Assembly (NCBI RefSeq): GCF_017377715.1
Contig: NZ_JAFVMF010000009.1
Coordinates: 62,001-126,000, forward strand
Origin: Acetobacter sacchari
Lineage (GTDB): Bacteria > Pseudomonadota > Alphaproteobacteria > Acetobacterales > Acetobacteraceae
Direction of reading: 5' to 3'
DNA length: 64,000 nucleotides
Shown here: positions 3,301 through 32,039 of the stretch, piece after piece
Layout of the letters: every line of letters starts with the position of its first letter
How positions within the stretch are numbered: position 1 is the first letter of the stretch
The notes under the pieces: model-generated
Database searches by the model: none
The model's input: the letters and a program-made list of their open reading frames with translations, nothing else
What the model was told of the DNA's origin: nothing
Translations under genes and position numbers: made by a program

Positions 3301-3527
3301 ACCGTCGCGGTCAGGGCCCGTTCGTAATAGTAGACGACGCGACCCGACATATCCTCCGGCATCAGCCCGGTGTAACTCCAGACCACGGCGACGACGGGAA
3401 TCTTGATGTTCGGGAACACGTCCGTCGGCGTCGACAGGATGGAGCGAACGCCGAACACAACGATCAGGATCGAGAGAACGACGAAAGTATAGGGTCGCTT
3501 GAGGGCGATTACGACGATTTCGTTCAT
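363..3527 (-). CDS. RND family efflux pump, inner-membrane permease
   Basis: A 1054-residue AcrB/MdtB-like proton-driven exporter of full family length. It opens with a short cytoplasmic stretch and TM1 (MNEIVVIALKRPYTFVVLS), then a large periplasmic porter loop. The TM4 segment contains GILVDDATVMIENI, whose Asp pair is the proton relay known from AcrB. A second TM block and second periplasmic loop follow in the usual duplicated layout. The start is supported by an AGGTGG ribosome site 7 nt upstream. It precedes its adaptor, the reverse of the usual adaptor-first order, and lies downstream of a two-component system. The exported compound cannot be read from the sequence. Confidence 0.95.
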   Translation of the reverse strand: MNEIVVIALKRPYTFVVLSILIVVFGVRSILSTPTDVFPNIKIPVVAVVWSYTGLMPEDMSGRVVYYYERALTATVNNIEHIESQSYYGRGIVKIFFQPGTDATVAQTQITSVSQTVIKQMPTGSTPPLILTYNASSVPVMTLQVSSTTMTASQIYNMASNLIRPALVSVAGAAMPNPYGGQPSNIMVDLDPTKLLAHGLSPVDVSVALNKQNIVLPAGDQKIGAMDWMVQTNATPRDIDTFNEIPIKQVGNSVVYLRDVAWVHQGGPPQTNLVLVKGQQGVIIVVMKSGDASTLDVVAGVKKLLPDVVKTLPPGVGVKILSDASIFVKDSVRDVVQEMVTAAILTGLVVLLFLGSWRSTVIIATSIPLAMLCSIIGLGWAGQTINVMTLGGLALAVGILVDDATVMIENIDSHLEQDKDLETAIIDAANQIVVATFVSTLCICIVWTPLFQLSGVAGWLFMPMAEAIIFAMLASFILSRTLVPTMAKYMLAAQVEAHRQGHKEPTNAFGRFQRGFEKRFEQFRIRYRDVLVALVALRSKFLLGFLGAAVCSLGLLFFVGQDFFPEINSNALAIHMRAPLGSRIEEAGKISQLVNAEISRLLPGQVEDVVDNCGLPFSALNQAFIPTPTVGAQDCDLNITLKDDDSPVAEYRQILRDGLSKAFPGTQITFMPADLTAKILNFGLPAPIDVQVVGRNLTDNFAFANRLAARLRRVTGIADVSVQQPMTTPTLRVNTHRSFALGTGITENDVANNALVALSGSSQVGQVYWLDTTSGVSHLVDIMTPSNFLQTMNSLETLPIDKGDGNPKGTTPQLLGGLSKIVQTGTPGEVAHYNIMPVFDIYATNEGIDLGTVAREVKRIVAQEQGNLPHGSSMVVRGQGVTMNAAYAQLIGGLAMSILLVYLIIVVNFQSWLDPFIIITALPGALGGIAWSLFLTHTALSVPALTGAIMCMGTATANSILVVSFARDELERHGDAIRAAIDAGFERIRPVLMTALAMIVGMLPMSMSNSQNAPLGKAVIGGLLIATVATLLFVPCVFAMIHGRRAHAKQGEAA

Positions 3528-3652
3528 AATCCAGCCACCTCGGACACGCGCCTTACAGAAACGTTCACAGTCAACATGCCTCGGCCTATGCCAGCCACAG
3601 AGTGTTGCAGCGAGTAAATTAGCATTTAGAGCTCAATTCGACGGACGCCCAA

Positions 3653-5164
3653 CTATCTGGCGGGCGCAGAAAAAACCGCAATGAACCGGGCTCCACGCTC
3701 CGGCTGTCCAGCCTGAGCATCTTCGATACGCACATGCGCGTTATGCAGCCGCAGTATAGATGACACAAGACTCAGACCCAAACCGCTGCCGCGCACGTGG
3801 CGACTCTTGTCCGATCGATAAAAGCGGGTCAGCACGGCCTCGCGCTCCTCAGGAGCCACACCGGGCCCTGTATCTGTAACTGACAACGCCGGGTGATCAT
3901 TCCACAGGCCGACCGACACTCGCACCTCCCCACCGGCCTTGGTGAACTTGATCGCGTTATCGACGAGATTGGCCAGAACCTCGATCAGCAGATCCCGGTC
4001 TCCATGCACCACAAGAGGCTGCGATACACCGTTCTGCCTATGCTCCGTAGCGCGGGCGGCGGCCCAGACATGCCCACCCTCCGCAACGCCGCCCTTGCGC
4101 TGCGGCGCCATGTCGTCACGCTGCAGCACCACCCCCTCGCTCTCGGCGATCGGTTCGTACAAATCTATGATATCGCCGGCCAGATCATCCAGATCGACGG
4201 CGGCGAAGCCGTCGCGGCGACGGCCATTGTCGATCTCCGCCATACGCAGCAGCGCTGTAATGATGCCGAAAGACTGATCGAGATCGTCGATCGCCCGCCC
4301 TATCGCCTTGTGCAGCTCCTCGACAGAATTTGCGTTCGCTCCCGTCAACGCGCGATCAAGGCGTGCGCGCACGCGCGCAAGCGGCGTGCGAAGGTCATGC
4401 GCGATATCGTTCCCGACCTCCCGCATGTCGTGCATCAACTGCTCAAGCCGGTCGAGCATTCGGTTCACACTACCCGCCAGACGTTGCAGGTCGTCTCGTT
4501 CTCTCCCTGCCGGGAGGCGCTCGTGGATGTCGCCCTGCATGATGCGGTCCACCGCCTCATGCATCTCCTTGACGCGCGACAACGCCCGGTGACTGAGCCA
4601 CAACCCTGCCATCAGGGCGAAAAGCAAGACCGGCGTCGCCGCTATCAGCGAGGCGCGCCGGAGCATGAGTTTTTGCTCGCCAAGCATATGACGGCTTCGA
4701 CCAAGCACAAGAATGCGCCCGTCCGGCATACGCGTGGCGATAAAGCGCAGGACGTAAGGCGCGCCCTCTTCCGGCTGCACCGTGACGTCATGGGGAATGC
4801 CGTCCTCGACCAGTCCCTCCGGCCACGCCCTCAGATCGCCGACGACCCGCTCCCGCGAAGACGTGAACACGCCTTCCGCATTGATGATAAGGCGCAGGTC
4901 GTCCGTAGAGCGCTCGCTGATGACGTAGTTCATGTGCTCCGTCGGCATGGCCAGCAGCAGCGCCGTCTCCCTGCGGAGCAGAGCATCCGACCGGCTGTGC
5001 TCCAGCGACGTCATCTGAACGTAGACGAGGGCGAATTGCAGGACCATGGCGCCGAGCATGGCGAGAGCGAACCCCAGCGCCAGCCGGAAACCCGCGGCTC
5101 GGGTCAGTTCCCTGCGGGAAAACGCGCGCGATGAAGCATCCTTCGGCGCGGAGGCGCCGCTCAT
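3653..5164 (-). CDS. Sensor histidine kinase (HAMP-HisKA-HATPase)
   Basis: A 503-residue membrane kinase. TM1 lies at about 25-50, a periplasmic sensor loop at about 51-168, TM2 at about 171-191, and HAMP at about 192-245. The H-box GNDIAHDLRTPLAR has the phosphoacceptor His256. The N-box is at 399-407 (Asn403), with DTGPG at 431-435 and GSGLGL at 459-464. All catalytic boxes are intact. A roughly 30-residue Gly/Arg/Gln-rich insertion at about 350-385, just before the N-box strand, is longer than in most relatives. The start codon overlaps the stop of the upstream response regulator (ATGA), so the pair is co-translated. The signal sensed is unknown; the downstream RND pump suggests a toxic-compound or envelope-stress cue. 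Confidence 0.93.
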   Translation of the reverse strand: MSGASAPKDASSRAFSRRELTRAAGFRLALGFALAMLGAMVLQFALVYVQMTSLEHSRSDALLRRETALLLAMPTEHMNYVISERSTDDLRLIINAEGVFTSSRERVVGDLRAWPEGLVEDGIPHDVTVQPEEGAPYVLRFIATRMPDGRILVLGRSRHMLGEQKLMLRRASLIAATPVLLFALMAGLWLSHRALSRVKEMHEAVDRIMQGDIHERLPAGRERDDLQRLAGSVNRMLDRLEQLMHDMREVGNDIAHDLRTPLARVRARLDRALTGANANSVEELHKAIGRAIDDLDQSFGIITALLRMAEIDNGRRRDGFAAVDLDDLAGDIIDLYEPIAESEGVVLQRDDMAPQRKGGVAEGGHVWAAARATEHRQNGVSQPLVVHGDRDLLIEVLANLVDNAIKFTKAGGEVRVSVGLWNDHPALSVTDTGPGVAPEEREAVLTRFYRSDKSRHVRGSGLGLSLVSSILRLHNAHVRIEDAQAGQPERGARFIAVFSAPAR

Positions 5165-6108: not shown

Positions 6109-9105
6109 ATGAATCCCGCTCAGGCGCCCAACAATCCCACGTCGGACGCACGTTGCGGAAAGAGCGCAGTTCGCGTGTCTCTCCTCGCCGCCACAGTTCT
6201 TGCATCGACTCAATTCGTCACAATCGCGGATGCCGCTTCGAGCCAGACGAGCGCCGCGCCGAAGCATGTGCGGCACGCCGTCTCCCGTCCAAAAACAATC
6301 CACAACGCTACTACGAACGCCGCACCAGTTGGCGGCGTGGCTCCCGCAGGCCGTGCGCCGTCGCGCGCCGCGGCTGCAACCGCGCTCAACAGAAACTACC
6401 AGTCGAACGAGACGGAAGACGTGGTGGTGACCGGCTCGATGCTGCGCACCGCGCGCAACTCCAGCCCGAACCCGGTTCAGACGATCACTTCGCAGCAGAT
6501 TCAGCAGACCGGCGTCACCACGCTTGGCGACTTCCTGCAGCGTATGCCGTCCATCGGCTCCAGCGGTACGAGCAACAACCAGACCAACGGCACATCGGGC
6601 CTATCGTGCACCGATTTCCGCAACATGGGGCAGCAGCGCGTGCTGGTGCTGATTGACGGAAAGCGTCCGACCATGACCGCCGGCGGCGCGTCTTCCGAAT
6701 GCTTCGACATGAACACCATTCCTACGGACATGGTGCAGAGCGTCGAAATGCTGAAAGACGGCGGCTCCGAACTTTACGGCGCTGACGCGGTCTCCGGCGT
6801 CATCAACATCAAGCTGAAACACAACGTCACCGACGCCGCCTTCACCGCCTACGGCGGCATCTCCGGCAAGGGCGATGCGCTGACCGGCAAGCTCTCTGCC
6901 CACAAGGGCTGGAACTTCGACCACGACAAGGGCAACCTGACGCTCTACGCGTCATATATGACGCAGGGCGGCATCTATCAGCGAGACCGTTCGTGGGCGA
7001 ATCCGGTAGCGGCGACAAACCCGACCTCCGGCACACCGACCTACGGGTCATCGATTTCTCCGATGGGCCATTTCTTCGGCTCGGAGAATGAATATTCCGG
7101 CTCCGCCAACGGGACGATCGTACCCTGGTCGACCAGTGATCGTTACAACTACGGTCGTGACCAGATGCTTTCGAATTCCTTGCAGAATTCGACGCTGAGC
7201 GGCGATCTCCATTACGAGATCAACAAGCATTTCATCCCCTACGCGAACGTGCTGTACAGCCACCGCACGTCGCTCGCCCAGATGGCGGCCGAACCGGTCA
7301 CCGGCGCGGTGCCGCCGTCAGACATGCCCGCCTCCGTGATCATCCCGGCGAACGATCCGTACAATACGACTGGAGAAGACCTCCAGATGTACAAGCGTAT
7401 GAACGAGTATGGACCGCGCCGCACGGAAGACGCTTCCGACACCGTGACGGCCATCGCTGGCATGCGCGGCGAGATCACCCATGGGTGGATGTACGACGCG
7501 TCCTATACCTATGGCGCGAACATGATGACCGAGCAGATGTCTGGCGTCGGCGATTATCGCAAGCTGCTTCAGACATACGGCCTGCAGCAGGTTAATCCGT
7601 CCGACACCAACAGCGCCCTGGTCTACAACCCAAGCGTCTGTAACGCCGCAGCCGGTTGCGTCCTGTCCAGCCCGTTCGGCCCGCTTTCGAACTCTGCGGC
7701 CGCATACTCAAACTATACGTCGCACAGTCACTACCACTACCAGCTCCGCGACCTTAACGTGCGCATCAACAACGATCACATCGTGAAGATGCCGTGGAAG
7801 CACGGCGGCGCATTCGCCGTAGCGCTGGGCATGGAGCACCGCGGCGAACAGCTGAGCTACAGCCCTGATCCGTTGATCGCGTCGGGCGAAAGCCTCACCA
7901 GCACGTCCACCTACACCGGCGGCGGCTTTAACGTCACGGAAGCCTATCTCGAAGGCAAGCTGACGCTGCTGCATAACGCGTTTCTTGCGCGCGACCTGAC
8001 GATCGACGGTCAGGGACGTTTCTCGTCCTATGACACCTTCGGTTCAGCCAAGAACTGGAAAGGCGCCATCAACTGGTCGCCGACGCGCGACATCCGGTTC
8101 CGTGCGACCATCGGTTCCTCTTTCCGTCAGCCGAACGTGTTCGAACTGTATGGCGGTCAGACAATGAACTACGCCAACGGCACTGATCCCTGCGCACAGG
8201 CGAGCACATATGGTGCATTCACACCGACCGTGATCGCAACCTGCCGCGCGAACGGCATTCCTAACCCAAGCACGTTTCAGGACGCCAACTCCGGCCAGAT
8301 TCCGACCCTTACCGGCGGCAATTCGAAACTGCGTCCGGAGACGGGCCGCACATGGACGGTCGGAACAACGGTGACGCCGCGCTGGATTCCTGGCCTGTCG
8401 GTCGATGTCACCTACTGGCACTACAATATCTCGAACCTGATTTCGGCCACGTCGACGCAGTATATCGCCGACCAGTGCTACACAGGTCAGAACACGGGTT
8501 ATTGCAGCGATATTCTGCGTTACAACTCGAACAATCAGATCGACTACGTATCGTCGTTCTATACCAACCAGGGCGGCCTGCATCAGAGCGGCATCGACTG
8601 GAGCACGAACTACCAGATCCGTCTGTCGCCTGTTGATCGTCTGATCATCAGCAACGAGTACCAGCAGATCCTGAACTACAAGCAGCAGACCACCAATGGC
8701 GGCTCGTGGATCAATTACACTGGCGCGCTGATCTATACCTCGCAGGCCGGATCGCTTCCTGCTGCGGGCATTCCGCGCGTTCGTGACTACGCCACGGCGA
8801 CCTGGAGGCATGGTCCTTTCTCCGTGACCTACATGATGTCCTTCACGGGCGGCATGCGCTGGAACAACTCGACCAACTACCTGTCGGCCGACGGCGCGCA
8901 ACGTTACAAGACGCCGGGCATGGTGATGAACAATATCTCGTTCACCTATGACGTTGGTCGCTGGTCGTTCCAGGGCGGCATCAACAACATCAACAACAAG
9001 AACCCGCCTTATGTCGTGTCCAGCTCGGACAACAGCATGGGCGCGCTGTACGGCAGCTTCTACGAAGGTCGCAGCTTCTGGCTGCAGGCTGGCACGTCGT
9101 TCTGA
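6109..9105 (+). CDS. TonB-dependent outer-membrane receptor
   Basis: A roughly 998-residue TonB-dependent receptor. A signal peptide (about residues 1-43, ending VTIADAA) precedes a basic, Ala/His-rich stretch. A TonB-box-like EDVVVTGSML follows, then a plug domain with the typical VLVLIDGKR and YGADAVSGVINIKLK segments. The 22-strand barrel ends in an aromatic residue (SFWLQAGTSF), as outer-membrane proteins do. I chose the ATG at 6109, which has TAGGG about 9 nt upstream; in-frame starts at 6073 and 5992 lack one. The family imports siderophores, cobalamin, sugars or other large ligands using TonB energy. No ligand-specific neighbour is present, so the substrate stays open. Confidence 0.92.
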   Translation: MNPAQAPNNPTSDARCGKSAVRVSLLAATVLASTQFVTIADAASSQTSAAPKHVRHAVSRPKTIHNATTNAAPVGGVAPAGRAPSRAAAATALNRNYQSNETEDVVVTGSMLRTARNSSPNPVQTITSQQIQQTGVTTLGDFLQRMPSIGSSGTSNNQTNGTSGLSCTDFRNMGQQRVLVLIDGKRPTMTAGGASSECFDMNTIPTDMVQSVEMLKDGGSELYGADAVSGVINIKLKHNVTDAAFTAYGGISGKGDALTGKLSAHKGWNFDHDKGNLTLYASYMTQGGIYQRDRSWANPVAATNPTSGTPTYGSSISPMGHFFGSENEYSGSANGTIVPWSTSDRYNYGRDQMLSNSLQNSTLSGDLHYEINKHFIPYANVLYSHRTSLAQMAAEPVTGAVPPSDMPASVIIPANDPYNTTGEDLQMYKRMNEYGPRRTEDASDTVTAIAGMRGEITHGWMYDASYTYGANMMTEQMSGVGDYRKLLQTYGLQQVNPSDTNSALVYNPSVCNAAAGCVLSSPFGPLSNSAAAYSNYTSHSHYHYQLRDLNVRINNDHIVKMPWKHGGAFAVALGMEHRGEQLSYSPDPLIASGESLTSTSTYTGGGFNVTEAYLEGKLTLLHNAFLARDLTIDGQGRFSSYDTFGSAKNWKGAINWSPTRDIRFRATIGSSFRQPNVFELYGGQTMNYANGTDPCAQASTYGAFTPTVIATCRANGIPNPSTFQDANSGQIPTLTGGNSKLRPETGRTWTVGTTVTPRWIPGLSVDVTYWHYNISNLISATSTQYIADQCYTGQNTGYCSDILRYNSNNQIDYVSSFYTNQGGLHQSGIDWSTNYQIRLSPVDRLIISNEYQQILNYKQQTTNGGSWINYTGALIYTSQAGSLPAAGIPRVRDYATATWRHGPFSVTYMMSFTGGMRWNNSTNYLSADGAQRYKTPGMVMNNISFTYDVGRWSFQGGINNINNKNPPYVVSSSDNSMGALYGSFYEGRSFWLQAGTSF

Positions 9106-9123
9106 CGCGCTTTCGCTGAATGT

Positions 9124-9148
9124 CGCGCGCCGGGTTCTCCGGCGCGCG
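9124..9148 (+). terminator. Hairpin after TonB receptor, probable terminator
   Basis: A perfect 10-bp GC stem, CGCGCGCCGG with CCGGCGCGCG, with a 5-nt loop (GTTCT), begins about 19 nt after the receptor stop. It lacks a clean T-run, so termination strength is uncertain. Confidence 0.55.
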
Positions 9149-9176
9149 CTTGCTCCGTCACACATAAGACGGGCGA

Positions 9177-9216
9177 CGGAGAACGCCTCAGACCGCCGAC
9201 CCTCTGGCGTTCTCCG
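9177..9216. repeat. 11-bp inverted repeat with 18-nt loop
   Basis: CGGAGAACGCC at 9177-9187 is exactly complementary to GGCGTTCTCCG at 9206-9216. It lies between convergent genes and could be a second terminator-like structure or a protein site. Confidence 0.5.
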
Positions 9217-9514
9217 AAGCACCTTAAAAAACTAGTCAGTCATATGGTTTCATAACACCTACCGAATACTCCGTTGCTTTCATGCAAGCATTACGGCGCA
9301 TTCCTCTGATGGCGAGCGTCAGCGTGTCCGCACCTCGCGCCAAGCCCCCCAGACGCAAGCCTGAATGGCCTCGCAAACACCCCATCGTGGCCAAAGAGGG
9401 GCATTGAACGGGTTAGTCCAGTTCTCCGACCACTCGACCACGAGCACGGCTGGCGCTCCTCTCATTTTCCGGCATCCAGACGAACGAGAAATCTGCTGTT
9501 GCAGTCTCGCACTC

Positions 9515-10789
9515 CTACTCTAATGACGCGCCGTCACCGACCTCTGTTTCGGGCACGTCAGCAGAATCCAGAGAACGCAACTGCCGCGCGACCACCCTCG
9601 TCCGGCGACGCGCGTCTTCAATTGATGATGACATCGCCTGCGCATTTCGAGAAAGCTTCTCCAGAACCCCGTCCATCTTCAGCATTTCCTGCCGGGTCGC
9701 GCCGAGCAGACTGGCTATCGCCTCGGTGCGGTCTTCAAGAGAAAGCGTGACATAACCGAGATGAATCGTCCGCAGCAGTGCCGGCGTGAGGGACGGCCCC
9801 ATGATCATGACCCTGCATGTCCTGCCGATCTCGTCAATCAGACCCGGAGCACGGGCGACTTCTGCGTATAGACCATCGGTCGGAAGATAGAGGACAGCGA
9901 ATTCAACCGTCTCGGGCGGCGAAATATACTTCGCCGCAATCTTCCGCGCCTCGAACCGGATCGCGGTCTCAAGCGCACGTCGCGCCGCGCGCTCAGCCTC
10001 TCGATCATCCTGCGCGCAGGCGTCAAGCAGGCGCTCATACGCCTCCGTAGGGAATTTGCTGTCGATGGCGAGGACCGGCGGCGCAGCGGCGCGCACGGGC
10101 ATCCGCACAGCGAACTCCACGACCTCCCCGCCCTGCCCGATCCGCCGGTTGGCCTCGTAGGCGCCGGGAGGAAGAATGTCGTCCAGAATGGCGCGAAGCT
10201 GCGCCTCGCCCCAGCCGCCCCGGGTTTTCACATTGCCGAAGAGGCGCTTGAGGTCGCCGATCTGGGCCGTCATGGCCGATACTTCGCCCATCGCCTTCTG
10301 CATGGCGGAGAACTGTTCCAGAACGCGCTGGAACGATGTCTGCATCTGCTTTTCGACAGCAGCGTGCAGTTGTTCCGTCACCGCTCCCCGGATGGCGGCC
10401 AACTGCACCGCACTTGCTTCCGCCATTTCGCGGAGGGCCGCAGCGGACGCAGCGCGCGCTTCCGCCTGTTCACGCCCGAGGCTGCCGCCGATATGCCCAA
10501 GACGCTCAGCCGTCTCGGCCCGCATCTGCTCCACGCGGGCGAGCAGCGCGCGCTCCATCTCACCGAGCCGGGCCAGATGATGCTCTGTCTCGGCGCGCCG
10601 CGCGCCGCCTTCCCGTTCCACGAGCACGTATAACCGGGCGAGGAGATCGCTGTCGGGGCCTCCGCCAGCGGGCTTGCGACGCACGAGCGTAGCGCCGATC
10701 CAGCCACCCAGAGCCAATGCGGCGAGAAGCGCGGCTCCCGTCCCTACGTCCGGCGGTATGAGACTCATCCCGCCTGCCCCGCCAGACAT
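9515..10789 (-). CDS. rmuC: DNA recombination protein RmuC family
   Basis: A 424-residue RmuC-like protein. An N-terminal membrane anchor (about 12-33, ALLAALALGGWIGATLV) is followed by a long Ala/Glu/Arg-rich coiled coil (about 55-175). The nuclease-like RmuC core comes next, containing GGWGEAQLRAILDDILPPG, FAVRMP and LAIDSKFPTEAYERL, hallmarks of the family. I chose the ATG at 10789 because GGGGAG lies just upstream; the longer frame starts with TTG. Family knowledge: RmuC limits inversions between short inverted repeats and has a restriction-endonuclease-like fold. It is transcribed alone, divergent from the dctA-like gene. Confidence 0.93.
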   Translation of the reverse strand: MSGGAGGMSLIPPDVGTGAALLAALALGGWIGATLVRRKPAGGGPDSDLLARLYVLVEREGGARRAETEHHLARLGEMERALLARVEQMRAETAERLGHIGGSLGREQAEARAASAAALREMAEASAVQLAAIRGAVTEQLHAAVEKQMQTSFQRVLEQFSAMQKAMGEVSAMTAQIGDLKRLFGNVKTRGGWGEAQLRAILDDILPPGAYEANRRIGQGGEVVEFAVRMPVRAAAPPVLAIDSKFPTEAYERLLDACAQDDREAERAARRALETAIRFEARKIAAKYISPPETVEFAVLYLPTDGLYAEVARAPGLIDEIGRTCRVMIMGPSLTPALLRTIHLGYVTLSLEDRTEAIASLLGATRQEMLKMDGVLEKLSRNAQAMSSSIEDARRRTRVVARQLRSLDSADVPETEVGDGASLE

Positions 10790-11096
10790 AGTCTCCCCAT
10801 ACGCCGTCAAACCTCCCGCTTCCGTCCAACGGACGTATCAACTTTACGCGTTCCGAGAAAGCGATCGGCCATCAAGAACGCCGCTGACCAATGCGTTCAG
10901 AGCCGCCAATACGTGATAAGGCGTTCTCTCCTCGATAGAAAACCAATCCGCCTTCCATCGAAATTCTGCTGCCGGCCTACGAAATCCCCGCGGTTGGCGT
11001 CGACGGAGGACGATGCTATCGGAAATTTCGCGACGCCCGGTCGACAACGAACAGATAATACAAAGACGATCGGCGCCCCCATAACCGCCCCTGCAG
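10790..11096. promoter_or_regulatory. Divergent intergenic region rmuC / dctA
   Basis: 307 bases that must carry the promoters of two divergent genes. A GATAAT-like hexamer occurs about 25 bases before the dctA start, but no well-spaced -35 was found. No gene is visible. Confidence 0.3.
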
Positions 11097-12467
11097 ATGG
11101 TACCCTTATCCATGCACGCGATCGCTCCCCACCCCAGTTCCCGCACGCCTCTGTGGAGGAGCCTGTACGTGCAGGTCGTCGTCGCCGTCGTGGCGGGCAT
11201 CCTGCTGGGTCAATTCGCCCCCCAGCTGGGCGCGGCCATGCGCCCATTGGGCGACGCGTTCATCAAGCTGGTGAAGATGGTCATCGCACCGGTGATCTTC
11301 CTCACCGTTTCCACCGGCATCGCTGGCATGGGGGACCTTGGCAAGGCTGGTCGCATCGGCGCCAAGGCGATGGCGTATTTTCTTGTCTTCTCGACGCTGG
11401 CTCTCGCAGTCGGAATGGTGGTCGCCAACGTCGTGCATCCTGGAGGGGGCATGCATGTCGATCCCCACTCCCTCGACGCCGCCAGCGTCAGCACTTATGT
11501 GGATCGCGCACACGATCACTCCTTCACGGATTTTCTCCTCCAGATCATCCCCACCACCACCGCGAGCGCCTTCACGTCGGGCGAAATTCTCCAGGTGCTG
11601 TTCGTAGCCGTCGTGTTTGGCGTCAGCCTGTCGCAAATGGGCTCACGCGGCGAACCCGTCCTCAACCTGTTCCGTCAATTGACCGAACTCGTGTTCGGGG
11701 TCGTGCGCATTGTGATGCTGGCCGCCCCGATAGGCGCATTTGGCGCGATGGCTTTCACGATCGGAAAATTCGGCATCGGCTCTGTAGTCAGCCTGATCTG
11801 GCTGGTCGGCACGTTCTACCTGACCTCCATCCTGTTCATCGTGCTTGTGCTGGGCGTCGTGGCGAGAGTCTGTGGATTTTCGATCTTTCGCCTTCTTGTC
11901 TACATCCGTGAAGAGCTTTTGATCGTCCTCGGCACCAGCTCATCTGAATCCGCTTTGCCGACGTTAATGTCCAAGCTGGAAGCAGCAGGCTGCGCCCGAC
12001 CGATCGTGGGCCTTGTCGTACCCATGGGATATTCGTTCAATCTGGACGGCACCAATATCTACATGACGCTCTCCGCTCTGTTCATCGCACAGGCGACAGG
12101 CATCCATCTGTCTTTCGGCGAACAACTCGCCCTGCTTCTGGTGGCGATGGTCAGCTCCAAAGGCGCCGCTGGCGTCACCGGCGCGGGATTCGTCACTCTC
12201 GCCGCGACTCTCTCCGTCGTGCCCAGCGTCCCCGTCGCGGGCATGGCGCTTATTCTCGGCATCGACAAATTCATGTCCGAATGTCGCTCCCTCACCAATA
12301 TCGTCGGTAACGCAGTCGCAACAATCGTGGTGGCGAAGTGGGAAAACCAGCTCGATAGCGCGCGCCTGTCAGACGCGCTCGCCGGGCGTCTGCCGCCGAC
12401 CGAGCTCACCCCTGCGGCGATCGAAGACGAGGCCCGTGACGAGGCGGCCGTACACCGCTTTCACTAA
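11097..12467 (+). CDS. dctA: Dicarboxylate/amino acid:cation symporter (DctA-like)
   Basis: A 456-residue member of the DAACS/glutamate transporter family. The N-terminus [19 protein letters not shown] and [20 protein letters not shown] match DctA closely. Later segments show the serine-rich re-entrant loop [13 protein letters not shown], the [10 protein letters not shown] unwound TM7 motif, and [20 protein letters not shown] in the second hairpin. DctA takes up succinate, fumarate and malate with cations across the inner membrane. Either the ATG at 11097 or the one at 11112 could be the start; neither has a strong ribosome site. The gene stands alone, followed by transposase debris. Confidence 0.93.
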
Positions 12468-12477
12468 GCGCGCGCTT

Positions 12478-13080
12478 CAAGCCCATGTCGCAGGGGCCGC
12501 AGAAGCAGATGAGCGAGCATGTGATCAGTGTGCAGGCTAAGTGGGTATCGGCTCTTCTTTTGTAGCGAACGGTCAGGCGTCGGAAACGGGGCACCCATGA
12601 GAGGGTGCGTTCGACGACCCAGCAATGCTTTCCGGGGTGGGTGCTGCTTTCAATACCTTTTCCGGCGATCCTGGGCCTGATGCCATGACGGGAGCATGCC
12701 ACCCAGCAGGATCGATAGCCGTAACCCTTGCCGACGTGAGGCGTTCCAAAGCTATGGCGTGACCGCCCTTTCTTCCTCCTGGTGGAAGGCTGTGCACTCA
12801 GGAGGAGTTCGATCCTCCGGCTGTCGTGGACACTCGCGCCGGACAGCAAGCAGTCAGCGGGATACCCTGCCGATCCGTGACGATGCGCCGCTTCGTCCCT
12901 CATAATCCATGGGATTGGAGCCTGTCGTTTCGCCCCAATTTTTGCCGCGATGGACGCACTGTCCATGCAAGCCTGACTCCCGTTCAGTCGATCGGCCTGA
13001 CGGAGACGGGTCAGCAACTCACCATCGAAGCGCCTATACGCGCGCCTGACGCCAGCAGGTAATCGCGAAGCTGCATCCTG
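12478..13080 (-). mobile_element. Degenerate IS5-family transposase remnant
   Basis: Read on the minus strand, the segment matches the C-terminal two-thirds of an IS5-type DDE transposase, but in several frames. LTRLRQADRL, ACMDSASIAAK, then TGSNPMDYEG in a second frame, TKRRIVTDRQGIPLTA in a third, then back to LLSGASVHDSRRIELL, VGKGYGY, IRPRIAGKGIESS, WVVERTLSWVPRFRRLTVRYKRRADTH and ITCSLICF. At least three small indels break the gene and its N-terminal third is missing. No terminal inverted repeats were recognised at either edge, so only a dead internal fragment remains. It ends directly after the dctA-like gene. Confidence 0.82.
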
Positions 13081-13744
13081 CCTCGCGTGGGCGCGGCCCC
13101 CACGAAATGCCTGTCAAAAGAACGAACACTATCCCCGTCAATGCCGAATGGTCGGAAACACGAGATGAGGCCATGGAACCTCACCCGTCATCCACGACCG
13201 GATTACATGGAGGGGGTGAAATACGCCTTTACTTGCTGACGTAAAAGCAAATTAATTCGACTGAGTAACGACACACTCCGCAACAAAGAATCGAAGTCCT
13301 TCGTTCACTCCACTACGGGTACAAGGGAGTTCCTTCCGCGTGTCGCATGACAGTGATTACTTGAGCGAATAAACACATTTGCAAACATAATAGACGAATC
13401 AAAAAAATTTTTGCGGCGCAGAGGCTCACCAAAAATTTCCCGGCGGCGCGTCAGACGCCACTGTTTTCACTTTTTCCTTCCGCCCGAAAAACGTTTTATG
13501 GAAATTTCTTTTTAAAAATGGAACTTTCCATAAATACAAAAGATTAAGCACTTAACTCTTTGCGACGTCTCGATGCACGCGCACGTTGTAAAGATGACAC
13601 AGACGCCTTTGATCCCGTCTGCACACAATAAAGCTACATGACGACGGGGGGCGCAGTGTGCATCATTGCAATCGCACAACCGGTGAAGAAAAACCTCGCA
13701 CCGGATTTTCGCCAGTAACAAAAAAAACAATCGAAGTGCTGAAG
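13081..13744 (+). promoter_or_regulatory. AT-rich upstream region of the porin-permease pair
   Basis: About 660 bases without a supportable gene. The first 150 bases resemble the GC-rich surroundings. From about 13240 the DNA turns AT-rich with runs such as AAAAAAATTTTT near 13405 and TTTTTAAAAA near 13510. A possible loose promoter is TTGAGC (13361-13366) with CATAAT (13386-13391), but the 19-bp spacing is long. A pair of direct repeats lies further downstream. It most likely controls the porin-like gene. Confidence 0.4.
13498..13531 (+). promoter_or_regulatory. Direct-repeat operator candidate
   Basis: ATGGAAATTTC at 13498-13508 and ATGGAACTTTC at 13518-13528 match in 10 of 11 positions and are exactly 20 bp apart, two helical turns. 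The second copy is also near-palindromic (ATGGAA-CT-TTCCAT). They sit about 215 bp upstream of the porin-like start in an AT-rich tract. Confidence 0.35.
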
Positions 13745-15550
13745 ATGAATCACACAGACACGAAGACGTTTCCCGGTCGACGCTCCGTCTCCATCACAAA
13801 AATCTTAAGAACTTCCAGCTTTCTTACTGGTTTGTTTCTTTTTTCGCCGCACATTGCGGCCGCTGAAACAGCACCGAACGCAGGCATAAACCAACATACC
13901 CCGATCCCTGACGCCTACATGAACACCGCTCACACGACGACGCCAGCGACCGTAAATAAATACGGACCAAATGGCCCCTTGCAGGCGCTGCCTATAATAC
14001 GACGCACGACGAAGGGATTCTGGGATTCCGAACTTCTTCCGACCCTGGACTCCCGTCCCGAACTCTATGCACAGCCTCAATCGCTGGAGCTGACGCCCCA
14101 GCCATCCGCTCTCCTGCACCAAGGGCCCTGGGGCGTCTTCAACGCAAACACCGGCGCGGCATCCGGTTTCGGAACCGTCGGTTATTACGCCGTGTCTCGC
14201 TGGGCTGAAGACTGGTCAAAACTCCGCGACAAGCGCAACCGCATCGATTTTCTGGACCCGCTCAAATACATTCCGTTAAATGAGAGCGGCTCCATCTATC
14301 TGACACTGAGCGGAAATTTCCGCCATCACGGCTTCTTCGACCAGCGCGCCGGTTTCGGCACGACCAAGAAAGACCCGGCCTATCGTTCGACACTGCGCTG
14401 GAACGCGGGCGCCGACCTGCATCTGGGCGAACATCTGCGCCTGTACGGCGAACTCATGAGCGCACAAGCTGGCGGCATGAACTACTACGGATACGCTGGC
14501 GGCCGCTGGCGCAGCAAGCTGGACGCCCAGCAGGCCTTCGTAGAAGTGAAGGGGCATCTGCTGCACGCGAACATGGGCGTGATGGTCGGGCGCATGACGT
14601 TCCTCGATGCGCCGCCTTATATCACCGCAGGAAGCGTCTATCCGACCGTGCCTTATTCGTGGAATGGCGTCCGGGCTTATTCCTTCTGGAAGAACTTCCG
14701 CGTCGATCTCTTCGATCTGACCCTGACCAACAACGCCCCGACAACCGCGTTTCACGATCAGGTCGGCTACCGAACCCGCTGGTATGGGGCCTACACATCC
14801 TACGCCGTGCCGTCGTTCAAGTTCATGAACATGAAGAGCCAGGTCTTCGTCGACACCTTCTTCATGGGCTATCTGCTCGCCAGCAACCCGATTGCGAAGA
14901 CGACCGGAACCATCGCCGGATCGACCCGCAGAGACACTCCGGGCATGAGAATCTGGGGCAACGCCGGACCGATCGAGTTTTCTGTCGGCGGCATGTGGCA
15001 GGGGGGATACTTTCAGGCCGCGAATAACGGGCCGCGCCGCTCCGTCGACGCCTATGCGTTCGATGCGCAGATTTCATGGCGCTTCGCCAAGGTGTGGGGC
15101 CGCCCCCTGCTGGGCATTCAGGCCGACGACATATCCGGCGGCGACACCAGAAAGAGCCAGACCAGTTCGTGGGGCAACTTCCTGTCGCCATGGGTGCCCA
15201 GCGCCTATTATCTCGACATCAGCACCTATATCGGCAACTCGAACATCATCGACGTTGGACCGATCGCCACGATCTCTACAAGTAAAAACACGTCTCTCCT
15301 GATGAAAGTTCCTGTAATATGGAGAAATAGTACAAACGACGCGATTTACGCCAACCCGACGGCCATCTACGCATTCCGCCCACACGGCGGCTACACGGCC
15401 ACCATGCCGCAGGCCAGCTTCACGTGGCGCGCGACGCGTCATATAACGCTCAGTATCGACGGCGAGTACGTGTTCGCCTCGAAGGCCATGATCAACGCTG
15501 GCGCGTCTTCCGGCGCATACGTTCAAAGCAACCTGGAGCTAACCTTCTGA
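13745..15550 (+). CDS. Alginate-export/porin-like outer-membrane protein
   Basis: A roughly 601-residue exported protein. A basic N-terminus and hydrophobic core give a signal peptide cleaved near residue 43 (IAAAE). After a Pro-rich linker comes a beta-rich region whose LNESGSIYLTLSGNFRHHGFF, GADLHLGEHLRLYGELMSA and FVEVKGHLLHANMGVMVGR segments resemble the alginate-export (AlgE-like) barrel family. It ends with F (NLELTF), as outer-membrane barrels do. The start ATG at 13745 gives a proper signal peptide; a longer frame begins with GTG. The permease gene starts 2 nt after the stop, so both are probably one transcript importing the same anionic substrate. Family assignment is moderate; the substrate is unknown. 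Confidence 0.7.
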   Translation: MNHTDTKTFPGRRSVSITKILRTSSFLTGLFLFSPHIAAAETAPNAGINQHTPIPDAYMNTAHTTTPATVNKYGPNGPLQALPIIRRTTKGFWDSELLPTLDSRPELYAQPQSLELTPQPSALLHQGPWGVFNANTGAASGFGTVGYYAVSRWAEDWSKLRDKRNRIDFLDPLKYIPLNESGSIYLTLSGNFRHHGFFDQRAGFGTTKKDPAYRSTLRWNAGADLHLGEHLRLYGELMSAQAGGMNYYGYAGGRWRSKLDAQQAFVEVKGHLLHANMGVMVGRMTFLDAPPYITAGSVYPTVPYSWNGVRAYSFWKNFRVDLFDLTLTNNAPTTAFHDQVGYRTRWYGAYTSYAVPSFKFMNMKSQVFVDTFFMGYLLASNPIAKTTGTIAGSTRRDTPGMRIWGNAGPIEFSVGGMWQGGYFQAANNGPRRSVDAYAFDAQISWRFAKVWGRPLLGIQADDISGGDTRKSQTSSWGNFLSPWVPSAYYLDISTYIGNSNIIDVGPIATISTSKNTSLLMKVPVIWRNSTNDAIYANPTAIYAFRPHGGYTATMPQASFTWRATRHITLSIDGEYVFASKAMINAGASSGAYVQSNLELTF

Positions 15551-23560: not shown

Positions 23561-24007
23561 TCATCCGGCTTTCGACCAGCCTTTTTCACCCTGACGCCAA
23601 TACGTCAAAGAATGGCCCTGCGCCTTCAGCGCCGACCAGCGGCGCCGGGCGGCGGCTACGGCCATATCGTCGCGGCCATCAAAAAGGTCAAAAACTCTCT
23701 CGAACGCCTCGAGCTTTTCAGCTTCACGCGCTCCGAGAAGGAATAAATACGTAGCAGCGTTCGGCGTATCATCTCCGGACGTGATCCAGATCGGCTGACG
23801 ATCGGGAAATTTTGCGCCCATCGCCGCGTGCGGCAACCACACGGGCTCAGAAACCCGCCAGAGCGCCTCATCAAGAGAAGCGACGTCGACGCTTTCACCA
23901 CAACGCACGACAGCGCGCTTTCCGGCGTCAAGCGTGCGCCCCAACAACTGCGGCAACGCCTCGTCCGCCGTGGTGCGAGTCAGATGGTAGAAACCAATCT
24001 CCGCCAC
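23561..24007 (-). CDS. holC: DNA polymerase III subunit chi
   Basis: A 148-residue HolC. It begins MAEIGFYHLTRTTADEALPQLLGRTLDAGKRAVVRC, the family's N-terminal strand-helix pattern. DEALWRVSEPVWLPHA follows, and later the FDGRDDMAVAAARRRWSALKAQGHSLTYWRQ segment. Chi links the clamp-loader psi subunit to the C-terminal tail of single-stranded DNA-binding protein at the replication fork. The start is GTG with GGAGGG upstream. It lies 32 nt after pepA, the usual pepA-holC pairing in proteobacteria, and is probably co-transcribed. Confidence 0.93.
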   Translation of the reverse strand: MAEIGFYHLTRTTADEALPQLLGRTLDAGKRAVVRCGESVDVASLDEALWRVSEPVWLPHAAMGAKFPDRQPIWITSGDDTPNAATYLFLLGAREAEKLEAFERVFDLFDGRDDMAVAAARRRWSALKAQGHSLTYWRQGEKGWSKAG

Positions 24008-28254: not shown

Positions 28255-28374
28255 CCCCACGCTCCGCAGTGTTTCGCCGGGGTGGGCGCAGGGCGGCAGG
28301 CTGATGTAAGATCGCGCTACAACGCCGCCGCCGTCGCGGCCCACGCCCCGCCGCAGAGCTTTGAGAGGACACCC

Positions 28375-29826
28375 ATGACCGCCTTCGCCAGCGACGCCGC
28401 GCTCAGCCTTCCCGCGGACGCTCTGGAGCAGCTTCGAACCGCTCTGGGTTCAGGCGGCCTGCTGACCGAAGCCTCCGACATGGCCCCATTCGTCACGGAC
28501 TGGCGGAACCTGTTTCACGGCCGCGCCTGCGCTGTGGCGCGCCCGGCGACGGCTGAAGCCTGCGCCGAAACGCTGCGCATCTGCGCCGAGCACAAGATCG
28601 CCGTGGTGCCGCAAGGCGGCAACACCAGCATGGTCGGCGGCGCGACCCCTGACGAAAGCGGACGGGCGCTCGTGCTGGTCACGAGCCGGATGAACCGTGT
28701 GCGCGCGATCGACCCGATCGACCAGACCATGACCATCGAGGCTGGCGTGACACTGAAAGCGGCGCAGGACGCGGCGAAGGAAGCGGGTCTGCTCCTTCCG
28801 CTGTCGATCTCGTCTGAAGGTTCTGCCGAAATCGGCGGCGTGCTGGCGACGAACGCTGGCGGCAACAACACGGTCCGCTACGGCAATGCGCGCGAGCTGG
28901 TGCTGGGCCTGGAAGTCGCCCTGCCCGACGGACGCAAGCTCGATCTGATGCGCCGCCTGCGCAAGGACAACACCGGATACGCCCTGCGCCAGATCTTCAT
29001 CGGCTCGGAGGGCACGCTCGGTCTGATCACCGCAGCGATCCTGCAACTGCAACCAGCGCCGCGCTCCATTGAGGCTGCCTTGTGCGCCGTGGAAAGTCCC
29101 GCCGCCGCCCTGCGTCTTTTCGCCGCCTTCCGCTCCCGCGAACCCAGCGCGATTCAGGCGTTCGAGTTCATGTCCGGCGTCAGCATGGGGCTGGTCAACA
29201 CGCTGATCCCCGACGCGAAGCTGCCGCTAGCGGAGCCCGCTGCCGCTTACGTGCTCGTCGAACTGGCGAGCCCCCGAGAAGGCGGCGCGCTGCGAGAGCT
29301 GATGGAAGAAGCACTCGGCGACGCACTGGAAAACGGGCTGGTGACAGACGCAGTTCTTGCGGAAAGCGAAGCGCAGCGCGGCGCATTGTGGAAACTGCGC
29401 GAAGAGCATGCTGAAGCGCAGAAGCGCGCAGGCGCATCGGTGAAGAACGACGTCTCCGTGCCGCTGTCGGCCATACCGGAGTTCATCGAACGCGCCAGCG
29501 CCGCCTGCGAAGCCCTGATCCCCGGCGTGCGCGTCGCGCCCTTCGGCCATATCGGCGACGGAAATATCCACTTCAATCTGGTCCAGCCCGAAGGCGCGGA
29601 CGGCGCCGCTTTTCTGGCGCGTGATCACGACATCATGGACGCCGTGGCCGGGATCGTTCGTGAACTGGGCGGCTCTTTCTCCGCCGAGCACGGCGTGGGT
29701 CAGCTCAAGACCTACATGATGCCGGAGTGGCGCGGCGGCGCCGAACTAGACGTGATGCGCCGCATCAAGACCGCGATCGACCCGCAGGGGTTGATGAATC
29801 CAGGGAAGGTGTTGCCAGCGCTTTAA
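28375..29826 (+). CDS. FAD-binding oxidoreductase, GlcD/D-2-hydroxyacid dehydrogenase family
   Basis: A 483-residue PCMH-type flavoprotein. The FAD domain carries VVPQGGNTSMVGGATP, SSEGSAEIGGVLATNAGGNNTVRYG and GSEGTLGLITAAIL. The cap and C-terminal domain hold the metal/substrate motif FGHIGDGNIHFN, SAEHGVGQLK and the terminal LMNPGKVLP. This layout fits D-2-hydroxyglutarate, D-lactate or glycolate dehydrogenases. D-2-hydroxyglutarate dehydrogenase is a good guess because SerA side products are common, but this is inference. The ATG at 28375 has GAGAGGA upstream. It appears to be monocistronic. Confidence 0.9.
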   Translation: MTAFASDAALSLPADALEQLRTALGSGGLLTEASDMAPFVTDWRNLFHGRACAVARPATAEACAETLRICAEHKIAVVPQGGNTSMVGGATPDESGRALVLVTSRMNRVRAIDPIDQTMTIEAGVTLKAAQDAAKEAGLLLPLSISSEGSAEIGGVLATNAGGNNTVRYGNARELVLGLEVALPDGRKLDLMRRLRKDNTGYALRQIFIGSEGTLGLITAAILQLQPAPRSIEAALCAVESPAAALRLFAAFRSREPSAIQAFEFMSGVSMGLVNTLIPDAKLPLAEPAAAYVLVELASPREGGALRELMEEALGDALENGLVTDAVLAESEAQRGALWKLREEHAEAQKRAGASVKNDVSVPLSAIPEFIERASAACEALIPGVRVAPFGHIGDGNIHFNLVQPEGADGAAFLARDHDIMDAVAGIVRELGGSFSAEHGVGQLKTYMMPEWRGGAELDVMRRIKTAIDPQGLMNPGKVLPAL

Positions 29827-29903
29827 AAAAATCAATCCCCGCAATAAATTTCAAAACTTTCGCGTTAATCTGCCTGATAGAATATTGTAGACACTCCTGA
29901 CAT

Positions 29904-30641
29904 TCAGAATGGAATATTATCGTCCAACTCTTCCTGCGGTTTCGGCAAACTGGGCTGCTTACCTACAGGTGCCGGCAGCGCCCGCAGGGGCGGCGTCAAA
30001 CGTTGAACTGCCAACTCTTCAGACTCTTTGTCATGACCAATTAGTTGCATAATTTGCGTGACGGCGTTGTGGCCGTCTGCCATTATCGTCACTCCAGCAG
30101 ACGTAGCGGCCAAAACCGAGGTCAACACACTCATTGTTTTTGCAAAACTTAATCTTTTTCCAGAAATTTCTTCAGATAAATGATTCAGCCTTCTATATAA
30201 GTTATTTTTACGATTTTCATCCAAATTTGAATTTTCCACTACATCGCGAATACGCGATATATAATGTTCAACCTTCGTGCGCGTATTTTCCGTCAAATGC
30301 ACAGAGTAAGCATGCCTTGCGCGACGAAATTTGATCCGAATACGAGCGACCTCACCTTGCACATCCAAACAAAATCGAGAAAAAATTTCGTCAAAATCTA
30401 CAGAGTATTCCGGATTATATAATATGTTCGGGATTAAACACTCTTCAGCGACGGCAGATACCGAGACCATATACTGCTCACGAACGGTCCGATCAAAAAC
30501 TCCAGACGTATTCTCGTCAATCAGCCTCAACATATTCCTCTTACAGATCGCTTCAAACTCGACAAAACAACGATCATCGTCATCTGGCAGATTGGCGTAA
30601 TCTTCCTCTGAAATTAGTTCGTAATTCATCAGGTCACTCAT
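29904..30641 (-). CDS. Orphan AT-rich gene encoding protein with SSB-like C-terminal tip
   Basis: A 245-residue protein of no family I recognise. Residues 1-100 are acidic and look helical. Residues 100-110 are strongly basic (RIRIKFRRARH), 110-165 charged and helical, 171-187 hydrophobic (a possible membrane or buried helix), and 217-235 proline-rich. The last residues, ELDDNIPF, mimic the DDDIPF tip of single-stranded DNA-binding protein. The codons are much richer in A/T than either flank, suggesting recent transfer. I chose ATG at 30641; a TTG precedes it and the frame stays open further upstream, so the true start could be earlier. The frame continues opposite trpB, where it is only a shadow. 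A 9-bp direct repeat, GGCCGCAAG (30669-30677, 30684-30692), lies just upstream. Confidence 0.75.
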   Translation of the reverse strand: MSDLMNYELISEEDYANLPDDDDRCFVEFEAICKRNMLRLIDENTSGVFDRTVREQYMVSVSAVAEECLIPNILYNPEYSVDFDEIFSRFCLDVQGEVARIRIKFRRARHAYSVHLTENTRTKVEHYISRIRDVVENSNLDENRKNNLYRRLNHLSEEISGKRLSFAKTMSVLTSVLAATSAGVTIMADGHNAVTQIMQLIGHDKESEELAVQRLTPPLRALPAPVGKQPSLPKPQEELDDNIPF

Positions 30642-30815
30642 CAACTCGCGCTGTCCTACATAGTATGTGGCCGCAAGCGACAAGGCCGCAAGGTCCCCAA
30701 TTGGACGCCCCTTCCCCCTCTCTGGTATACGCCCTGACCTGAAGATCCTGCCCACGCGACAGGAGAACGGCACGGAGACAGCTCCAGACAGGGGCCAAGA
30801 AAGCGGGAACTGGCG

Positions 30816-32039
30816 ATGACGGACGGCACTAGAAGCAACAGCCTGCGTAGCGGGCCCAGCCCTTCCGGGCATTTCGGCGACGGCCTCGGTGGTCGTTTCG
30901 TGGCCGAGACGCTCATGCCGCTGCTGCTGGAACTGAACGCGGCTTACGAAACCGCGAAAGCCGATCCGGAATTCCGAAAAGAGTTCGAGTTCTATCTCCG
31001 TGACTACGTCGGTCGCCCCTCCCCACTCTGGTTCGCCCGTCGCCTGACCGAGCAACTCGGCGGCGCCAAAATCTACATGAAACGTGAAGAGCTGAACCAC
31101 ACCGGCTCGCACAAGCTGAACAACGTGATGGGCCAGATCCTGCTCGCCCGCCGCATGGGACGCAGCCGCATCGTCGCCGAAACCGGCGCCGGACAGCACG
31201 GCGTCGCAACGGCCACGGTCTGCGCCCTGTTCGGCATGAAATGCGTGATCTACATGGGCGCCACCGACGTGGAGCGTCAGAAGCCCAATGTCTTCCGCAT
31301 GAAGCTTCTGGGCGCCGAGGTCATTCCCGTCACGTCCGGCGCGGGCACGCTGAAGGATGCGATGAACGAGGCGATGCGCGACTGGGTCGCAAACGTCGCC
31401 GACACCTATTTCCTTGTCGGCACGGTCGCCGGGCCGCACCCGTATCCGGCAATGGTGCGCGATTTCCAGACCGTGATCGGCGAGGAAACGAAGACGCAGA
31501 TGCAGGACGCCGAAGGCCGTCTGCCGGACGTGGTGATCGCGGCCATCGGCGGCGGATCGAACGCCATGGGCATCTTCCACCCGTTCCTGGATGACGCGTC
31601 CGTCCGCCTGATCGGCGTCGAGGCAGCAGGCCACGGCCTCGACAGCGGCAAGACCGCCGCTTCCATCTCGCGTGGACGACGCGGCGTGCTGCACGGCAAC
31701 CGCACCTATCTGCTGCAGGACGAGAACGGCCAGATCGACGAGGCCCACTCCATCAGCGCCGGGCTGGATTATCCCGGCGTCGGTCCTGAGCACTCATGGC
31801 TGCATGAAATCGGGCGCGCCGAATATGTCGGCGTCACGGACGACGAGGCTCTGGACGCCTTCCAGACCTGCACCCGGACCGAAGGGATCATCCCGGCGCT
31901 GGAAAGCGCGCACGCCATCGCCCACGCCATCAAGGTCGCGCCGTCGATGAGCCCCGACACTCTGGTCGTCGTCAACATCTCCGGCCGAGGGGACAAGGAC
32001 ATCTTCACCGTCGCCGAACATCTCGGAGTCAGCCTGTGA
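30816..32039 (+). CDS. trpB: Tryptophan synthase beta chain
   Basis: A 407-residue TrpB of normal length. It shows the PLP-lysine segment [29 protein letters not shown], the phosphate-binding loop [13 protein letters not shown] and the C-terminal [12 protein letters not shown]. It joins indole with serine to give tryptophan, forming an alpha2-beta2 complex with TrpA. The stop overlaps the trpA GTG start (GTGA). trpF, which often precedes trpB in alphaproteobacteria, is absent; the AT-rich orphan gene lies there on the other strand. GCGGGAA is the likely ribosome site. Confidence 0.97.

What the first reader, a model, noticed from the sequence alone, without database searches (positions are those of the whole stretch)
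29904..30641. Foreign-looking orphan protein ending in an SSB-type recruitment tip
The gene is strikingly AT-rich between two GC-rich housekeeping genes and encodes a 245-residue protein of no family I recognise. Its end has the layout of single-stranded DNA-binding protein: a proline-rich flexible linker (217-235) and the acidic, Pro-Phe-terminated tip ELDDNIPF. In SSB this tip recruits RecO, RecQ, PriA, Exo I and the polymerase chi subunit (chi is encoded in this window as holC). The body has a basic patch (100-110) and a hydrophobic helix (171-187) but no OB fold is apparent. A protein carrying only the tip could hijack or block SSB partners, as a defence, anti-defence or replication-control factor.
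Basis: partly seen in the sequence, partly recalled or inferred. Interest (0 to 1): 0.72.

Follow-up and report, generated by a model that had tools for sequence, protein, structure and literature searches.

The report
Mobile gene with an SSB-like tail
This AT-rich gene belongs to an undescribed family of helical bacterial proteins that end in the same short docking tail as the cell's single-stranded-DNA-binding protein and are found in prophage-like DNA, on plasmids and beside phage-defence genes, so they may hijack or block DNA-repair and replication enzymes.

Summary
Window 29904-30641 (minus strand) encodes a 241-245 residue orphan, 43% GC against 65% in its flanks, ending ELDDNIPF; the host's SSB ends DLDDEIPF. 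Without selecting for the tip, random pairs share 33% of the body, 11% of the linker and 79% of the last six residues; pairs with bodies under 30% identical still share 80%. Two predicted models are all-alpha without an OB fold; Foldseek gave no PDB match at E<=0.001, and Pfam, NCBIfam, PHROGs and PADLOC name no such family. The gene is sporadic and has lower GC than its flanks at 29 of 29 loci measured. Copies lie in viral contigs, on five plasmids, and beside a retron, AbiJ-type genes, PARIS, an Abi_2-like gene and an MmeI-type IIG system, but a control did not establish enrichment for defence genes. Most likely it is a mobile accessory protein that docks its tail into SSB-partner pockets (chi, RecO, PriA) and diverts or competes with them, probably in phage defence. 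Docking is strongly implied; purpose is inferred.

The parts
29904..30641 (-). Orphan gene, 245 codons from ATG 30641; the family start suggests ATG 30629 (241 aa)
   Evidence: GC 0.43 vs flanks 0.65
29907..29930 (-). SSB-type C-terminal tip, residues 238-245 ELDDNIPF
   Evidence: 183 of 192 family records of 225-300 aa end PF, 173 of 192 fit [DE][DENGST][DENQ][IVL]PF; own SSB ends DLDDEIPF
29931..29996 (-). Proline-rich low-confidence linker, residues 216-237
   Evidence: 24% P over the family; block pLDDT 79 falling to 63; 11% identity between members
29967..30002 (-). Conserved proline motif at the root of the linker, residues 214-225 RLTPPLRALPAP (family RLAPPPKALPAP)
   Evidence: R214, L215, P218, L222, P225 near-invariant
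29997..30290 (-). C-terminal helical bundle, residues 118-215 (four helices), invariant E158 and R163 over 18 diverse rows
   Evidence: AlphaFold model m3b02d864fc43; alignment A2
30099..30146 (-). Helix 166-181, strongly hydrophobic only in the close clade
30312..30344 (-). Basic stretch, residues 100-110, end of the long helix 83-112
   Evidence: best 14-mer net charge in 75-130 averages +5.0 (close) and +4.5 (distant), only modestly above the best in 130-215, +3.3 and +3.8
28282..29826 (+). Left neighbour, FAD-linked oxidase-like gene (name recalled from sequence), GC-rich
30816..32039 (+). Right neighbour, trpB-like gene (name recalled from sequence), divergent from the orphan
   Evidence: in the nearest relatives homology begins at about window 30806-30816
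23561..24007 (-). holC (DNA polymerase III chi), a candidate partner type, not part of the locus
   Evidence: PF04364 E 5.3e-33

Best explanation
It is one member of an undescribed, horizontally spread family of accessory proteins: an all-alpha body, a proline-rich leash and a host-type SSB C-terminal tip. The tip is expected to dock into the pocket that SSB partners (chi/HolC, RecO, PriA and others) use for SSB, so the protein competes with SSB or brings such an enzyme to whatever the body binds; the basic helix may touch nucleic acid. Most likely purpose: a small phage-defence or inter-element competition factor carried by prophages, plasmids and defence islands. Shown: sequence, conservation, no OB fold in the predicted models, mobility. 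Inferred: the docking. Most uncertain: defence as the purpose, and blocking rather than recruiting.
For: Tip conserved while the body diverges: over all 192 full-length records, without selecting for the tip, 79% against 33% identity, and 80% in the 2571 of 4000 sampled pairs with bodies under 30% identical; 183 of 192 end PF. The tip has the sequence of the SSBs of the same cells: own SSB DLDDEIPF; of 11 genomes with tipped members given to, 10 show an SSB ending in a hydrophobic residue then DD[DE]IPF, the eleventh (G122) being cut by its contig end. Published: the SSB tip of nine residues recruits at least 17 partners (PMC10018359, abstract in listing); the last six residues of a phage SSB are needed for Sak4 binding (PMC5928155, passages). 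HolC and RecO genes are present in this genome. Distant clades align over full length (hhalign E 3e-27 to 9e-26) and are predicted to fold alike. Mobile and defence settings: between portal and prohead protease genes (L010); near a PARIS AriAB gene (L110, E 1.5e-59) and a PD-T4-5/Abi_2-like gene (L114, E 1.3e-16) in viral contigs; overlapping an AbiJ_NTD4 gene (L018; PADLOC calls it PDC-S32); 430 bases from a type I-C retron RT (L103); directly upstream of a DNA methyltransferase gene (MmeI-type IIG where scanned) and a PLD-family gene on three plasmids.
Against: No binding or phenotype data. Many copies, including this one, stand among ordinary-looking genes (most of these neighbours were judged by eye, not scanned). 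In the control, 148 ORFs over 5 kb away gave PADLOC matches at E<=1e-10 to 57 models, at least four kinds of family among the 25 shown (UvrD-type helicase, RecD-like, PDC-S35, PDC-S68), while my 26 near ORFs were hand-picked (6 matched); enrichment is not demonstrated. The three plasmid cassettes are near-identical copies, one event rather than three. Superfamily members without the tip exist (L064, L065, L066), and the pCMU01 copy has it out of frame. In the sister species the gene is frameshifted. The profile searches used alignments that contain the tip.
Confidence: 0.55

Rival explanations
1. Element-serving factor: the protein helps its prophage, plasmid or transposon by steering host replication or recombination enzymes (replication control, damping RecO/RecA loading, or counter-defence), not by defending the cell.
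For: Found in viral contigs, on plasmids with relaxase or ParA genes and beside serine resolvases.
Against: Many copies sit in GC-rich, ordinary-looking surroundings with no element recognised by eye; in L010, L110 and L114 it lies by structural or defence genes, not by recognised replication genes.
Confidence: 0.22
2. Decoy sensor: the tip is bait. Phage proteins that grip or mimic SSB tails bind it, releasing a toxic or signalling activity of the helical body (abortive infection).
For: Several defence systems are reported or thought to detect phage SSB: Nhi, Hachiman, retron Eco8, Septu (PMC12904381 passages); neighbours include Abi-type genes; frameshifted copies would suit a costly gene.
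Against: No toxic domain or catalytic signature recognised; hydrophobic helix not conserved.
Confidence: 0.13
3. The tail acts within the protein or on SSB itself: it folds back on the basic helix (autoinhibition) or competes for the SSB OB groove, with no partner enzyme involved.
For: A basic stretch is kept on average; in SSB the tail is reported to touch its own DNA site weakly (PMC5928155 passage).
Against: Would not obviously need the host SSB sequence ending in a free Ile-Pro-Phe to stay fixed while the basic helix sequence drifts.
Confidence: 0.07
4. Accidental resemblance: an AT-rich orphan whose last residues happen to look like an SSB tail.
For: Tip-like strings are not rare: the reversed control of the loose pattern gives 30 hits in 21 genomes, about 1.4 each.
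Against: 183 of 192 records end in PF with bodies at 33% and tips at 79% identity.
Confidence: 0.03

Closest known systems
Bacterial SSB (PF00436) C-terminal tail
   Same: Flexible linker followed by an acidic tip ending Ile-Pro-Phe, nearly the host's own (ELDDNIPF against DLDDEIPF)
   Different: No PF00436 match, all-alpha model; linker rich in proline, whereas the own SSB linker is glycine-rich
DUF669 (PF05037) protein in the same genome
   Same: Ends VDDEIPF
   Different: Different body: the window protein has no PF05037 match
Systems reported to sense phage SSB (Nhi, Hachiman, retron Eco8, Septu)
   Same: Would work through the SSB interaction network, as those are thought to do (PMC12904381 passages)
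   Different: Those act by nicking or cleaving DNA (same passages); this family shows no such domain and carries the SSB tail itself
Abi_2/PD-T4-5 and AbiJ proteins
   Same: Occur at some of the same loci
   Different: No match of the window protein to these families

Membership tests
SSB (PF00436) | OB-fold DNA-binding domain | tested here: not met
   no Pfam match up to E 10; all-alpha AlphaFold models of two subfamilies
SSB (PF00436) | C-terminal acidic tip ending in Pro-Phe on a flexible linker | tested here: met
SSB (PF00436) | Tip binds SSB partner proteins | not testable with these tools
   no complex modelling or binding assay available
Known anti-phage defence families (PADLOC-DB 2.0.0) | Match to a model of a known or candidate system | tested here: not met
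   best Cas4b E 0.0022, 16.2 bits, residues 95-147 only
Known anti-phage defence families (PADLOC-DB 2.0.0) | Located in defence islands | tested here: inconclusive
   clear defence neighbours at several loci, but the control did not show enrichment
Known anti-phage defence families (PADLOC-DB 2.0.0) | Protects cells against phage | not testable with these tools
   needs a plating assay
Phage protein families (PHROGs v4) | Match to a phage family | tested here: not met
   best phrog_36069 E 0.035; no tblastn match in 50,697 phage records for the window protein (E<=0.1) or P0167 (E<=0.01)
Any fold in the PDB | Significant fold match | tested here: inconclusive

The most novel reading that the evidence does not exclude
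A previously unrecognised class of mobile immune or counter-immune protein that works by SSB-tail mimicry: a helical scaffold presenting a copy of the host SSB tip so as to seize the shared docking pocket of replication and repair enzymes (host or phage), giving alphaproteobacterial prophages, plasmids and defence islands control over who may work on single-stranded DNA.
Probability: 0.35. Interest if true: 0.85.

Novelty: new variant of a known kind. Interest (0 to 1): 0.7.

Why it matters
The SSB tail is the main docking hub of bacterial DNA maintenance. A family whose best-kept feature is that tail, mounted on a non-SSB body and moved by phages and plasmids, would show that this hub is a target in conflicts between bacteria and mobile elements, and would give a natural competitor scaffold. 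It can be tested with one pull-down and one plating assay. In nine literature searches (open-access PMC papers, listings only apart from passages of four papers) I saw no description of an OB-less SSB-tail family.

Tried and rejected
Membrane-anchor idea: rejected for the family, since the hydrophobic helix is kept in 76 of 78 close but 4 of 105 distant members. HEPN-like RNase idea: the R-N-H-like letters near 150-154 are not conserved. Cas4, Filament and HBL hits: weak matches on helical stretches. Helical-bundle matches (YicC, LemA, PedB and others): Z within the range quoted as common for bundles. Viral fold library: best A0A8S5QGN6 at E 0.014, probability 0.98 but TM 0.29, not pursued. 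Conserved operon partner: none seen across loci by BLAST except resolvases in a few, and the IIG/PLD pair on three plasmids. The dld-trpB gap as a defence hotspot: G647 has an MFS-like gene (recalled from sequence) and G520 9.6 kb of other DNA there; no clean empty site was found. Defence enrichment: control inconclusive (148 of the 159 far ORFs listed were given). Promoter and terminator scan of 29750-30900: none found, below shuffle means; repeats in 29700-30900 are short and I read no element ends in them. My first pair statistic was taken among the 173 records already chosen for the tip (tip 88%), which is circular; the report uses the unselected one (79%). The profile searches contain the tip and could favour tipped relatives; records without it were nevertheless returned.

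Full report
What is there. The gene lies at 29904-30641 on the minus strand, between a FAD-linked oxidase-like gene and a trpB-like gene (both names recalled from sequence): 43% GC against 65% in the flanks. It reads as 245 residues from ATG 30641, but most homologues start at the residue equal to Met5, so 241 residues from 30629 is likelier. HolC is in the window at 23561-24007.

Whose gene. The window lies in a 4.55 Mb genome. A genome of the same genus, G532, whose contig C3 has the length of NZ_AUBI01000003.1 (418,109 bases), corresponds to Acetobacter nitrogenifigens DSM 23921; over 5 kb it is 96% identical. That strain has the gene at the same place but frameshifted; 12 codons differ, 7 silently and 5 not. 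Of 49 genus genomes searched with the locus 48 match, but only these two match through the gene. In two others, G647 and G520, the flanking genes lie 2.2 and 9.6 kb apart with different DNA between them. The gene is therefore probably a lineage-specific acquisition.

The family. No Pfam, NCBIfam, PHROG or PADLOC family fits. One sequence search gave 97 relatives; two profile searches gave 101 (4 new) and 152 hits (120 listed, 118 new): 220 records with the query. Of the 192 records that are 225-300 residues long (query included), 183 end in Pro-Phe and 173 fit [DE][DENGST][DENQ][IVL]PF; most of the nine that do not end in PF look shifted or cut at their ends. By group, 78 of 81 close and 105 of 111 distant records end in PF. 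In 4000 random pairs of all 192, body identity averages 33%, the eight linker residues before the tip 11% and the last six residues 79%; in the 2571 pairs whose bodies are under 30% identical (mean 22%) the last six are 80% identical. Full-length profile comparisons between the window's clade and three distant clades give E 3e-27 to 9e-26. A second conserved piece, RLAPPPKALPAP in the window's clade, stands at the root of the linker.

Is the tip that of the host SSB? The own genome has three SSB-family genes; the first ends DLDDEIPF, the second DLDDEVPF, the third has no tip. Scanning the whole genome for DNA that would encode such an end followed by a stop found four places: the two tipped SSBs, a DUF669 protein ending VDDEIPF, and this gene. 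The reversed-pattern control gave one there, and 30 against 43 over 21 genomes, so the pattern alone proves little; the conservation does. Fourteen genomes were searched for SSB: 11 with tipped members (G087 broken, G287 with the variant end DDEENPF), G532 with the frameshifted copy, and G307 and G238 with tipless relatives. Twelve show an SSB ending in a hydrophobic residue then DD[DE]IPF; G307 gave no SSB and the G122 SSB is cut by its contig end. Four of the 26 SSB places could not be read by my script, and several further SSBs in these genomes have other ends.

Body. AlphaFold with 79 sequences gives an all-helical protein (mean pLDDT 89.6) with helices 12-16, 22-40, 47-67, 83-112, 118-137, 142-160, 166-181 and 188-215 and two short strands, then a tail of lower confidence. 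A distant clade gives nearly the same order of helices and the same two short strands (mean pLDDT 83.1). Neither shows an OB fold. Foldseek found no PDB match at E<=0.001 for either model and no viral one for the first (best E 0.014 with TM 0.29). VIA-align matches for the first are of the kind common for helical bundles. The hydrophobic helix is hydrophobic enough for a membrane in 76 of 78 close members but in 4 of 105 distant ones, so membrane insertion is not a family property. The most basic 14-residue stretch near residues 75-130 averages +5.0 and +4.5, against +3.3 and +3.8 in 130-215: suggestive only. The residues invariant over 18 diverse rows (F26, E158, R163 besides Pro-Phe) do not suggest an active site.

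Distribution. Matches at E<=0.001 in whole genomes, own genome included each time: 7 of 385 of the class with the close profile and 13 of 385 with the broad one, some weak or tipless; 7 of 395 of the order; 5 of 388 of the phylum, the only one outside the class being a 45-residue match with a stop at E 7e-4 that I do not count (how many of the 388 lie outside the class I was not shown in full). Pattern scanning of the 84,980-species collection gave 5 relatives. Every host I could name or place was alphaproteobacterial; the hosts of most metagenome proteins and viral contigs are unknown to me. At 29 of 29 loci measured the gene has lower GC than its flanks, by 2 to 24 points. These are not all independent: L006 is the window's site in the sister species, and L106-L108 are near copies; L029 and L113 are partial. 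L009, a broken copy at a contig end, and the tipless loci were not measured. Of the 29, 27 carry a tip in frame (L030 as DDEENPF) and two do not (L006, L108).

Setting. IMG/VR scans found the gene in L010, L110, L111, L112, L113 and L114; two subfamily scans found none. Phage genes were confirmed by Pfam in L010, L110, L113 and L114. In L010 the gene lies between a lambda-type portal gene and a prohead protease gene. In L110 a PARIS-type AriAB gene is 1.6 kb away; in L114 a PD-T4-5 gene (E 1.3e-16; Pfam Abi_2 just below its cut-off) is 0.9 kb away. Five plasmid records carry it. On an Ensifer megaplasmid it overlaps, by the likely start, the end of an AbiJ_NTD4 gene. On pMOC2, a M. currus plasmid and pCMU01 it stands directly upstream of a DNA methyltransferase gene and a PLD-family gene; in the M. 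currus copy the first is MmeI-type IIG, and the second matches PLDc_2 only weakly. An AbiJ-type gene is nearby on pMOC2 and type I-E cas genes on the M. currus plasmid. A Methylosinus plasmid has it beside a recombinase. On pCMU01 a frameshift in the linker has put the tip out of frame. In genome G335 (L103) a type I-C retron RT lies 430 bases downstream. Resolvase-like genes adjoin L033, L035 and L036 (Pfam for L033) and one lies 3 kb off in L018. At the other loci, the window included, I saw no such neighbour by eye.

How firm is the defence link? I scanned 26 hand-picked ORFs near the gene with PADLOC (one of them, in L032, overlaps the gene antisense); six matched at E<=1e-10. A control of 148 ORFs more than 5 kb away in the same loci also matched 57 models at that level, at least four kinds of family among the 25 shown, some of them general helicases; the number of ORFs matched is not given. 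Enrichment is therefore not shown. The link rests on the tightness of particular arrangements.

Mechanism. Published: partners of SSB bind its last residues (PMC10018359 and PMC7145534 abstracts in listings; PMC5928155 passages); that the terminal Pro-Phe matters most is recalled. A protein that keeps this end at the free C terminus of a flexible leash, while the rest drifts, is most simply explained by docking to those partners. Whether it blocks them, brings them to something bound by the helical body, or waits as bait for phage proteins cannot be told from sequence. I commit to competition or diversion of SSB partners as an accessory defence or inter-element factor at 0.55; the tip-docking step alone I would put at about 0.85.

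Novelty. The docking tail is known; a family that carries it without an OB fold I did not find described in nine literature searches, of which I saw listings, and passages of PMC12904381, PMC11981726, PMC5928155 and PMC13381803. I file it as a new variant of a known kind (SSB-tail-bearing proteins), with the bolder reading kept as the novel case.

Noticed in passing
L105 (genome G238) 8648-11031: A tipless relative of the family sits between ruvA and ruvB (both confirmed by Pfam), that is inside a Holliday-junction gene cluster.
   Followed up: partly
L104 (genome G307) 1024-4946: Another tipless relative sits between glmU-like and glmS-like genes (names recalled from sequence).
   Followed up: no
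L106 7998-12785, L107 7998-12784, L108 7998-12783: A mobile three-gene cassette on three plasmids: SSB-tail protein, DNA methyltransferase (MmeI-type IIG where scanned, L107) and a PLD-family protein, with different surroundings.
   Followed up: partly
L034 8991-16415: A family member lies within 1.2 kb of genes that look like dnaE2, imuB and imuA (names recalled from sequence), and near a DUF4238 gene.
   Followed up: no
L110 6582-8411: A PARIS-type AriAB gene lies inside a viral contig near a portal gene.
   Followed up: no
window 12406-14000: A second AT-rich dip (GC 0.48-0.52) next to an ORF that looks like a broken IS5-type transposase (recalled).
   Followed up: no
own genome G000, contig C8 about 140 kb and 160 kb (L004, L003): Two further SSB-family genes 20 kb apart, one with the tip (DLDDEVPF) and one without it, perhaps on a mobile element.
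   Followed up: no
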